Origin: a virus
DNA: 40,321 nt
IMG/VR virus record: IMGVR_UViG_3300012926_000010
Location: 1 to 40,321 of that record
Direction: 5' to 3' (one strand)
The notes beneath the pieces are model-generated. The model was given only the letters and a program-made list of their open reading frames with translations, made no database searches and was not told the DNA's origin. Within the stretch, counting starts at the first letter, position 1. Every line of letters begins with the position of its first letter. The position numbers and the translations under genes were made by a program. Below, in pieces: positions 37,961-39,684 of the stretch.

Positions 37961-38263
37961 TCACTTCTTGGTTTCGCGTTTCTGGATGGTTACTTTAAGC
38001 GGCAAGTCCGCCTGCGCGGTATTGAAGGATTGCTCGATCTCATCTTTGACCCGGTGACTGAAAGTGATCACAGTTTTAACCATGCGCTGGCTCCCATCGT
38101 AGCTAAGCCGGTGGGCTAAGGAAATTTTGATATCGGCATCATCATCGCGATAGGTCTGGATATCGGCCCAGTGATCCCGCAGCAGACTGCTGGTTTCTTC
38201 AGAGATTAGCTCGATTAACTGTTCGGATTCATCCTGAGCTTGTCGAATGGGTTCGGTAGTCAT
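37961..38263 (-). CDS. Unknown protein, co-operonic with nuclease
   Basis: This 100-aa protein has an acidic helical start (SEQLIELISEETSSLLRDHW), then strands (DIKISLAHRLSYDGSQRMVK, TVITFSHRVKDEIE) and a basic end. It resembles small phage recombination-side proteins in layout but I recognise no family. Codons 5-9 (PIRQA) lie on a TGAGCTTGTCGAA palindrome copy (38235-38247). ATG 38263 is preferred; the frame continues up to the array edge at 38308. Confidence 0.55.
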   Translation of the reverse strand: MTTEPIRQAQDESEQLIELISEETSSLLRDHWADIQTYRDDDADIKISLAHRLSYDGSQRMVKTVITFSHRVKDEIEQSFNTAQADLPLKVTIQKRETKK

Positions 38264-38620
38264 AGCTGCTGGTGTTCTTAAAGGAAAGCGGGCTCGCTCA
38301 TCGCGCATGGGTTTCTTGTCAGCAGTGGCTCGCTCACGCTCTTTAGTTTTCTCCTCATTCCTGGCTCGCTCCTTGATTTTGGGTTTCTCAATCTAGATGG
38401 CTCGCTCTTGTCCTCTGGGTTTCTCCGGTACTCTGGCTCGCTCTTCAGCAATGGGTTTCTCGAGCGCCTTGGCTCGCTCCGCCACCTTGGTTTTCTCAAA
38501 TGAGCTGGCTCGCTCAACGTTTCTGGGTTGGACATTCGACCGAGGACATTCGGCTGAGCTCAGTCGAAGCCCTAGAGTCGAGGTCCTCGCATCAGATGGC
38601 TCGCTCGATGTTCCTGGGTT

Positions 38621-38648
38621 GCCCTCGACCTCTAGCTCGGGCCGAAGG
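38621..38648 (+). repeat. 28-bp palindromic insertion inside a B block (copy 1)
   Basis: The sequence GCCCTCGACC...GGGCCGAAGG splits block B between TGGGTT and TCTC. An identical 28-bp copy is at 38757-38784 in another B block. It has imperfect inverted arms (CCTCGACC and GGCCGAAGG) and resembles REP-like palindromes found widely in bacteria. Confidence 0.8.
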
Positions 38649-38756
38649 TCTCTTGAAACGTGGCTCGCTCCCCAGATCTGGTTTTCTTATCAACCGTGGC
38701 TCGCTCACCGGCTATGGGTTTCTCTTTTGTAATGGCTCGCTCACTCTTTGCGGGTT

Positions 38757-38784
38757 GCCCTCGACCTCTAGCTCGGGCCGAAGG
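38757..38784 (+). repeat. 28-bp palindromic insertion inside a B block (copy 2)
   Basis: This is identical to 38621-38648 and at the same point of the block. A third, different insertion of about 55 bp (38530-38584), which includes a TTCGGCTGAGCTCAGTCGAA palindrome, splits another B block. Confidence 0.8.
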
Positions 38785-38871
38785 TCTCTTGGCTTGTGAC
38801 TCGCTCGTGGCGCTTGGGTTTCTTATGATATATGGCTCGCTCGTTTGCTATGGTTTTCTCCCCTTTTATGG

Positions 38872-39684
38872 CTAAATTATATGTTCCTTAGAATGCCCTC
38901 CTACTACAAAAATATAAGGATCTGTCACCGGCAACCCTTTCGCCTCACGCCCCTTAATCCAATAATGCGCTAGAAATAATTTGATCGTGCGCCGCTTAGC
39001 CCTGGCGTGCAGATGCCCATCACTCAATTTGCCTTGTTCTAACCGTTTCCTGGTTACCGTGTCCGGCTTGAATTTTTTATTAGTTAACTCTAGAGCAGCA
39101 ACTTTGGCATATTGACCGTTCTCATTCCGGCTGACCTCGTCGGTTTTGAACCCGATATACAATTTGCCATAGAGCGCCCCTTCCTTGCCGCTGACCTTGA
39201 CAAACGATTCCCCGAGTTTCCAGCAAAGGGTTTTTAATCGCCCGTTGTAAGGCAGCTTGCTCCCCTTGGTTTTGCGGTCGAATCCCGGTGCCTGGCCGGC
39301 AAACTTCCAGAGAGAAGAAATCGTAGTCGCTTTCTCAATATCGATATGCGCGGCGAGTCCTGCCGCAATGATCGGACCGATCCCCCATTGGTCGTACGCC
39401 CACTTAGCTTCTAAAGGCGATTCTGGGCTTTCCACCCATTTCTTAAGCTTGGAGGTCAGCACTTTCTCACCGATGTTCAACCAATAATCGAACCAATCCT
39501 TCATGGGTGAGACGCCTTCGCTCCGCTCCTTGTTGGCATGGATAATTCGAAGGGTTTGGGCGTCATAGTACAAACCAACCGCGTCAGCAATATCATCCTT
39601 CTTCAACTCGTAGTCTTCTAGAAGTTTATCTAATAATATAGAGCGGGTCTCACGCGATATTTCTATTTTCTTCTTCTTGTCCAT
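38872..39684 (-). CDS. IS110/IS116-like helix-hairpin-helix protein (Transposase_20-like)
   Basis: This 270-aa protein has a helical N-terminus of about 90 aa. The middle carries a helix-hairpin-helix region like the IS110 family C-terminal domain (WGIGPIIAAGLAAHIDIEKA, TISSLWKFAGQAPGFD). Next come LPYNGRLKTLCWKLGESFVK and KLSDGHLHARAKRRTIKLFL, which are basic and DNA-binding-like. The N-terminal DEDD RuvC-like domain of real IS110 transposases is absent, so it is not a complete transposase. It ends at the array edge (38874). It may be a phage DNA-binding protein that exapted this domain. Confidence 0.6.
   Translation of the reverse strand: MDKKKKIEISRETRSILLDKLLEDYELKKDDIADAVGLYYDAQTLRIIHANKERSEGVSPMKDWFDYWLNIGEKVLTSKLKKWVESPESPLEAKWAYDQWGIGPIIAAGLAAHIDIEKATTISSLWKFAGQAPGFDRKTKGSKLPYNGRLKTLCWKLGESFVKVSGKEGALYGKLYIGFKTDEVSRNENGQYAKVAALELTNKKFKPDTVTRKRLEQGKLSDGHLHARAKRRTIKLFLAHYWIKGREAKGLPVTDPYIFVVGGHSKEHII

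What the first reader, a model, noticed from the sequence alone, without database searches (positions are those of the whole stretch)
38290..38874. Array of 26 ten-nt blocks with 26 unique, exactly 8-nt spacers
Blocks TGGCTCGCTC and TGGGTTTCTC (7 of 10 positions shared) alternate strictly, and each is followed by exactly 8 nt, never 7 or 9, across about 580 bp. No spacer repeats. Constant length with free sequence means spacing matters and spacer identity either does not matter or is deliberately diverse. This is unlike CRISPR (repeats and spacers far longer), iterons (no variable spacers of fixed length), VNTRs (spacers would be copied) or coding repeats (stops occur in several spacers in the SEPxxxRNPxxx frame). 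Possible meanings: (1) a DNA scaffold for a protein that reads 10 bp every 18 bp (partition, packaging or DNA-compaction site); (2) a transcribed RNA, since it lies inside a minus-strand operon, with 8-nt guide or antisense segments; (3) a decoy array. The origin of spacer diversity is itself a puzzle.
Basis: seen in the sequence. Interest (0 to 1): 0.92.

Follow-up and report, generated by a model that had tools for sequence, protein, structure and literature searches.

The report
Phage TIGR-TasA dual-guide RNA array
The repeated blocks are the guide-RNA array of a TIGR-Tas system, an RNA-guided DNA-targeting system first described in 2025, sitting directly behind its tasA gene in an uncultivated phage; the kind is known, but this copy and its relatives show hairpins inserted into repeats and single spacers being reshuffled.

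Summary
On the minus strand, 13 units of GAGCGAGCCA-N8-GAGAAACCCA-N8 run from the stop codon of a 270-aa gene (38872-39684) down to 38290, and all 26 spacers are 8 nt. The gene encodes a Tas (Nop-domain) protein: phmmer E 2.9e-22 to TasR (PDB 9MTY), and its predicted fold matches TasR and TasH best. It has no nuclease domain, so it is TasA. The array fits a dual-repeat TIGR array (Faure et al. 2025, PMC12045711): a 36-nt unit, an edge repeat 9/10 identical to the experimentally processed SpTIGR array, and a truncated first edge overlapping the tas stop codon. The same array occurs in 139 fetched loci; 93 carry tas, with all 121 arrays on the tas strand. Two less expected points follow. Three loop repeats carry hairpin inserts; in a sister phage two matching units have plain 10-nt loops. 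In 100 arrays, single spacers recur with a different partner 30 times (null about 0.6), which suggests half-unit shuffling through the repeats. No natural target was found.

The parts
38872..39684 (-). tasA gene (270 aa Nop-domain protein, no nuclease domain)
   Evidence: phmmer to 9mty_A TasR 2.9e-22 and 21kl TasH 1.2e-16; AF2 model pLDDT 90.9, Foldseek top hits 9mty, 21kl, 9vzx, 9w02-04
38290..38872 (-). TIGR dual-repeat array, 13 units of spacer A(8)-loop(10)-spacer B(8)-edge(10)
   Evidence: parsing; 36-bp period in 93 tas-bearing loci
38869..38872 (-). 5'-truncated edge repeat GCCA, overlapping the tas stop codon TAG (38872-38874)
   Evidence: sequence; truncated first edge is typical of TIGR arrays (PMC12045711)
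38751..38788 (-). unit 3 loop repeat with 28-nt hairpin insert (spacers CAAGCCAA | CAAAGAGT)
   Evidence: fold -15.6 kcal/mol; sister unit CAAGCAAA | CAAAGAGT has plain loop GAGAAAACCA
38615..38652 (-). unit 6 loop repeat with the same 28-nt hairpin insert (spacers CGTTTCAA | GGAACATC)
38524..38588 (-). unit 7 loop repeat with about 55-nt hairpin insert (spacers TCTGATGC | GAAACGTT)
   Evidence: fold -27.2 kcal/mol; sister unit TCTGATGC | GAAACATT has a 10-nt loop
38671..38696 (-). unit 5 (spacers CGGTTGAT | GATCTGGG, loop AAGAAAACCA), the third unit conserved in the sister phage
   Evidence: sister CGGTTGAC | GATCGGGG with the same loop variant
38290..38299 (-). last edge repeat GAGCGAGCCC; no terminator found after it, the next gene starts close by
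37961..38263 (-). next gene downstream (start codon placed at 38263, outside the array; the listed ORF start 38308 lies inside the array)
   Evidence: start region conserved in the sister phage

Best explanation
A TIGR-TasA locus of a tailed phage. The tasA gene and the array behind it lie on one strand, with no terminator found between or after them, so they are probably co-transcribed. The array RNA is cut within the edge repeats into 36-nt tigRNAs, about 64 and 91 nt for the three hairpin-bearing units. A TasA dimer holds each tigRNA through the box-like ends of the edge and loop repeats. The two 8-nt spacers then pair with opposite strands of one 16-bp DNA target, read as spacer A followed by the reverse complement of spacer B. 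With no nuclease domain, TasA would bind and bend the target, most likely to silence or block DNA of a competing element or the host. Shown here: anatomy, protein family, strand and co-occurrence. Inferred from characterised relatives: processing, pairing rule, binding. Least certain: the biological target and purpose.
For: Tas homology by sequence and fold. Edge, loop and spacer layout as in PMC12045711. The Salicola phage CGphi29 array (SpTIGR, shown in the paper to be processed) has edge AAGCGAGCCA, loop AAGACAACCA and 8-nt spacers, nearly the same as here. 93 of 139 array loci hold a tas homologue, 121 of 121 arrays on its strand, 82 downstream with median gap 16 bp. Conversely, of 64 loci fetched by the Tas protein alone, 46 have best self-match at lag 36 and 55 at lags 34-38, against 8 of 156 control viral loci at lag 36. 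Spacers are free in sequence (2437 distinct of 2973, nearly flat base composition). Both spacers of a unit are kept together between sister phages.
Against: No terminator follows the array, which the paper calls typical. No target was found in 1.49 Mb of fetched loci beyond the shuffled control, nor in the window itself, so guiding is not shown. 46 of 139 array loci showed no tas in the DNA held; many of these matches lie near contig or locus ends, but this was not checked one by one. No expression data.
Confidence: 0.95

Rival explanations
1. A DNA scaffold: a phage protein binds the 10-bp blocks every 18 bp for partition, packaging or compaction; spacers are only padding.
For: Constant spacing with free spacer sequence would fit a DNA-binding array.
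Against: The gene at the array is an RNA-binding Tas protein; all 121 arrays are on the tas strand, which DNA sites would not need; repeat ends match box-like ends of tigRNAs (PMC12045711); both spacers of orthologous units are kept.
Confidence: 0.02
2. A coding repeat: the array is part of a protein with hexapeptide repeats.
For: 18 bp keeps frame; an 85-aa minus-strand ORF (38278-38535) and plus-strand ORFs cross the array.
Against: No codon periodicity at the spacer positions; 1-nt spacer indels in relatives break the frame; hairpin inserts interrupt it.
Confidence: 0.01
3. A decaying TIGR array: hairpin insertions and losses mark a relic that no longer works.
For: The window has 13 units against at least about 48 in the sister; three loops are interrupted; some sister repeats are degenerate.
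Against: tasA is intact and 92% identical to the sister protein; all 26 spacers are exactly 8 nt and the loop ends survive around every insert.
Confidence: 0.12
4. An IS110-type transposon with a bridge RNA rather than a TIGR system.
For: Nop-like domain shared with IS110 recombinases; PHROG calls the family 'transposase'; IS621 structures are the next fold matches.
Against: No IS110 domain found in Pfam, and the protein is too short for an N-terminal DEDD domain; TasR and TasH are far better matches; IS110 has one bridge RNA, not a 36-nt periodic array.
Confidence: 0.02

Closest known systems
SpTIGR of Salicola phage CGphi29 (TasH; HQ634153)
   Same: Edge AAGCGAGCCA against GAGCGAGCCA here, similar loop (AAGACAACCA), 8+8-nt spacers, array directly downstream of tas on the same strand, phage genome
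   Different: Effector is TasH with an HNH nuclease; here TasA without nuclease. SpTIGR ends in a terminator; here none found. No hairpin loops in SpTIGR.
TIGR-TasA systems with dual-repeat arrays, e.g. Flavonifractor plautii FpTIGR (Faure et al. 2025, PMC12045711)
   Same: Solo Nop-domain protein plus dual-repeat array, 36-nt unit
   Different: FpTIGR has 18 nt of spacer per unit according to the paper; here 8+8.
TIGR stem-loop arrays (same paper, Peromyscus gut locus)
   Same: Dual spacers with hairpins between them, as in three units here
   Different: There hairpins replace the repeats throughout; here only 3 of 13 loop repeats carry one and edge repeats are normal.
IS110/IS621 bridge-RNA recombinases and box C/D snoRNPs
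   Same: Nop-type RNA-binding fold and split guides (literature; IS621 fold match)
   Different: No catalytic recombinase domain, no methyltransferase partner, and a long guide array.

Membership tests
TIGR-Tas | Nop-domain Tas protein encoded next to the array | tested here: met
   phmmer 2.9e-22 to TasR 9mty, 1.2e-16 to TasH; Foldseek E 4e-09 to 9mty, all hits at E<=0.001 are TasR/TasH
TIGR-Tas | Array of two alternating 8-12-nt repeats separated by about 9-nt spacers (8 in SpTIGR) | tested here: met
   10-nt edge and loop repeats, 26 spacers of 8 nt; same layout in SpTIGR
TIGR-Tas | Edge and loop repeats share matching box-like ends | tested here: met
   Both begin GAG and end in CCA here; the Tas-bound motifs of TasR are UG and CCA (PMC12045711), so the 5' motif differs
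[quoted passage not shown]
   GCCA at 38872-38869 overlapping the tas stop codon
TIGR-Tas | Array ends with a 3'-truncated edge and a rho-independent terminator (typical, not defining) | tested here: not met
   Last edge is 10 nt long; no minus-strand terminator found
TIGR-Tas | Processing into 36-nt tigRNAs bound by Tas | not testable with these tools
   Unit length is 36 nt; needs small-RNA sequencing
TIGR-Tas | Tandem-spacer targeting of both DNA strands | tested here: inconclusive
TasA subtype | No HNH or RuvC nuclease domain | tested here: met
   270 aa, no Pfam match at E<=1; the model is helical, with no strands reported
CRISPR | Repeats of about 25-36 nt with spacers of similar size and cas genes | tested here: not met
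   10-nt repeats, 8-nt spacers; neighbouring genes checked are phage replication/nuclease-like
IS110 transposon | N-terminal DEDD recombinase domain plus C-terminal Tnp domain, single bridge RNA | tested here: not met
   No Pfam IS110 domain; TasR/TasH closer

The most novel reading that the evidence does not exclude
TIGR arrays diversify by exchange of single spacers through the short repeats, which makes new dual-guide combinations without an adaptation machinery, and their loop repeats accept whole hairpins, so that this array is a working hybrid between dual-repeat and stem-loop TIGR arrays.
Probability: 0.35. Interest if true: 0.65.

Novelty: new member of a known kind. Interest (0 to 1): 0.5.

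Why it matters
The founding paper leaves open how TIGR arrays arise and expand, what TasA does, and how dual-repeat and stem-loop arrays are related (PMC12045711). This window and its relatives give concrete material for two of these. A pair of sister phages carries orthologous units with and without hairpin loops. A set of 100 non-redundant arrays shows single spacers combined with new partners far above chance. Both can be tested by ordinary expression and pull-down.

Tried and rejected
Coding repeat: considered because GGG/GGT and CTC/CTT changes look synonymous in one frame; dropped, since spacer columns show no codon periodicity and relatives have 1-nt indels. Self- or cross-targeting: 1074 distinct pairs against 1.49 Mb gave 149 one-mismatch and 5 exact hits for the expected geometry against 129-146 and 4-6 for shuffled pairs, with no own-contig hit; window against itself, nothing at two mismatches or fewer. 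Hairpin inserts as a host-specific repeat: the palindrome was absent from 7 and then 289 Verrucomicrobiota genomes and the insert from phage records. Rfam: no match.

Full report
Observation. The array is real and almost exactly as described. Read on the minus strand, it is a truncated edge GCCA, then 13 times [spacer A 8 nt, loop repeat, spacer B 8 nt, edge repeat]. The edge is GAGCGAGCCA (all 13 within one change) and the uninterrupted loops are GAGAAACCCA or GAGAAAACCA (within one change). Every one of the 26 spacers is 8 nt.

Neighbourhood. The window is a 40,321-bp virus record with terminase, portal, major head protein, integrase, Sak4-like annealing protein and primase/helicase. Its terminase is closest to Akkermansia phages at 38% identity, so a Verrucomicrobiota host is plausible but not shown. 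The gene immediately upstream of the array on the same strand, 38872-39684, ends in TAG whose last base begins the truncated first edge repeat.

Protein. Pfam has nothing for it, but phmmer against solved structures gives TasR 9MTY at 2.9e-22 and TasH 21KL at 1.2e-16; 9MTY is the TasR structure of Faure et al.. An AlphaFold2 model from 40 window and locus sequences (alignment; pLDDT 90.9) matches TasR and TasH structures first (E 4e-09 to 8e-04) and IS621/ISCro4 recombinases next at E of about 0.01-0.07. There is no room for and no sign of HNH or RuvC, so it is TasA.

What the family is. TIGR-Tas (PMC12045711): alternating edge and loop repeats of 8-12 nt with spacers of about 9 nt (8 in SpTIGR), first edge truncated, processed into 36-nt tigRNAs, spacers A and B pairing with opposite target strands. 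I checked the SpTIGR array directly in Salicola phage CGphi29: AAGCGAGCCA N8 AAGACAACCA N8, ending in a terminator. The window array is its close relative, but has no terminator.

Relatives. The exact double-repeat pattern found at least 119 stretches in viral contigs and 67 in genome contigs; many single matches in genome contigs are chance. In 139 loci, the window included, an extended array is present. In 93 of these a tas homologue is in reach; all 121 arrays there are on its strand, 82 downstream, median gap 16 bp. Searching the other way, by Tas protein only, 55 of 64 loci show a best self-match at lags 34-38 and 46 exactly at 36, against 8 of 156 control viral loci at 36. The controls were loci from the target scans.

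Sister phage. Contigs 3300012203_000069 and _000096 (L194/L051, L039/L063) share mostly 82-94% DNA identity with the window over much of its length and a 92% identical TasA. They appear to be one phage broken inside the array, which is an inference. Three of 13 window units have clear counterparts, in the same order, with 4 substitutions in 48 spacer bases and both spacers kept: CAAGCCAA|CAAAGAGT, CGGTTGAT|GATCTGGG, TCTGATGC|GAAACGTT. The other ten were not found among at least about 48 sister units, but some could lie in the unassembled gap.

Hairpin loops. In two of these three conserved units the window loop carries a hairpin and the sister loop is 10 nt. The loop ends are kept. The third interrupted loop repeats the first insert letter for letter. 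No other fetched array shows such a strongly folded insert between intact loop ends (long segments there are mostly diverged repeats, and this was judged by eye). Part of the large insert also lies in the sister phage outside the array (L194 4699-4736), so it looks like a dispersed palindrome. Whether such loops still work is unknown. In TasR the middle of the loop repeat makes no clear sequence-specific contact (PMC12045711), which makes tolerance plausible.

Spacer reuse. In 100 non-redundant arrays with 1242 units, 16 unit pairs share spacer A only, 14 share spacer B only, and 6 share both; column-permuted arrays give 0.32, 0.31 and 0.00 on average, with maxima 4, 2 and 0 in 100 runs. In most cases identity ends at or just past the flanking repeats, the shared units are 1 to 11 apart, and the loop variant goes with the shared spacer in 24 of 30 cases against 12.1 expected in the same arrays. 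The 30 pairs come from 18 arrays and are not all independent. The simplest reading is exchange of half-units by recombination in the repeats; independent acquisition of the same spacer is not excluded.

Targets. None found. The geometry used, A followed by the reverse complement of B with 0-2 bp gap, is my derivation from the paper's cleavage rule and 8-nt 3' overhangs.

Verdict. Identity as a TIGR-TasA locus is close to certain. The function, RNA-guided DNA binding without cleavage, is inferred from relatives. The new points are the hairpin loops and the spacer reuse, both computational and awaiting test.

Noticed in passing
L500 4402-4760 (PP438412.1, Microcystis phage Mvi-JY20, about 22.1-22.4 kb): An isolated Microcystis phage carries a Tas homologue (XAI95461.1, annotated hypothetical) followed by a TIGR-like array with edge ATGCGAGCCA, loop ACGAAACCCA and mostly 8-nt spacers, ending in a terminator-like hairpin. 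Its host is known, so it may suit target searches.
   Followed up: partly
L194 4690-4755: In the sister phage a palindromic stretch related to the window's large hairpin insert lies outside the array, around a gene for which the window has an orthologue (485-1015); it seems to be read in frame in a disordered part of the protein.
   Followed up: partly
window 38230-38263 and L039 (reverse strand) after the array: The first codons of the gene after the array contain CATTCGACAAGCTCAGG, resembling a common bacterial intergenic palindrome, in both sister phages.
   Followed up: no
L181 (CP070677.1), L148, L174, L136, L162, L165, L185: Genome-collection contigs labelled Latescibacterota, Dehalococcoidia, Altiarchaeales, Colwellbacteria, Spirochaetaceae and Bathyarchaeota hold multi-copy arrays of the same repeat family; integrated phages or mis-binned phage contigs are possible.
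   Followed up: no
L021, L015, L056, L059, L174: Several contigs carry two or three separate arrays of the same family spread over a few kilobases on one strand.
   Followed up: no
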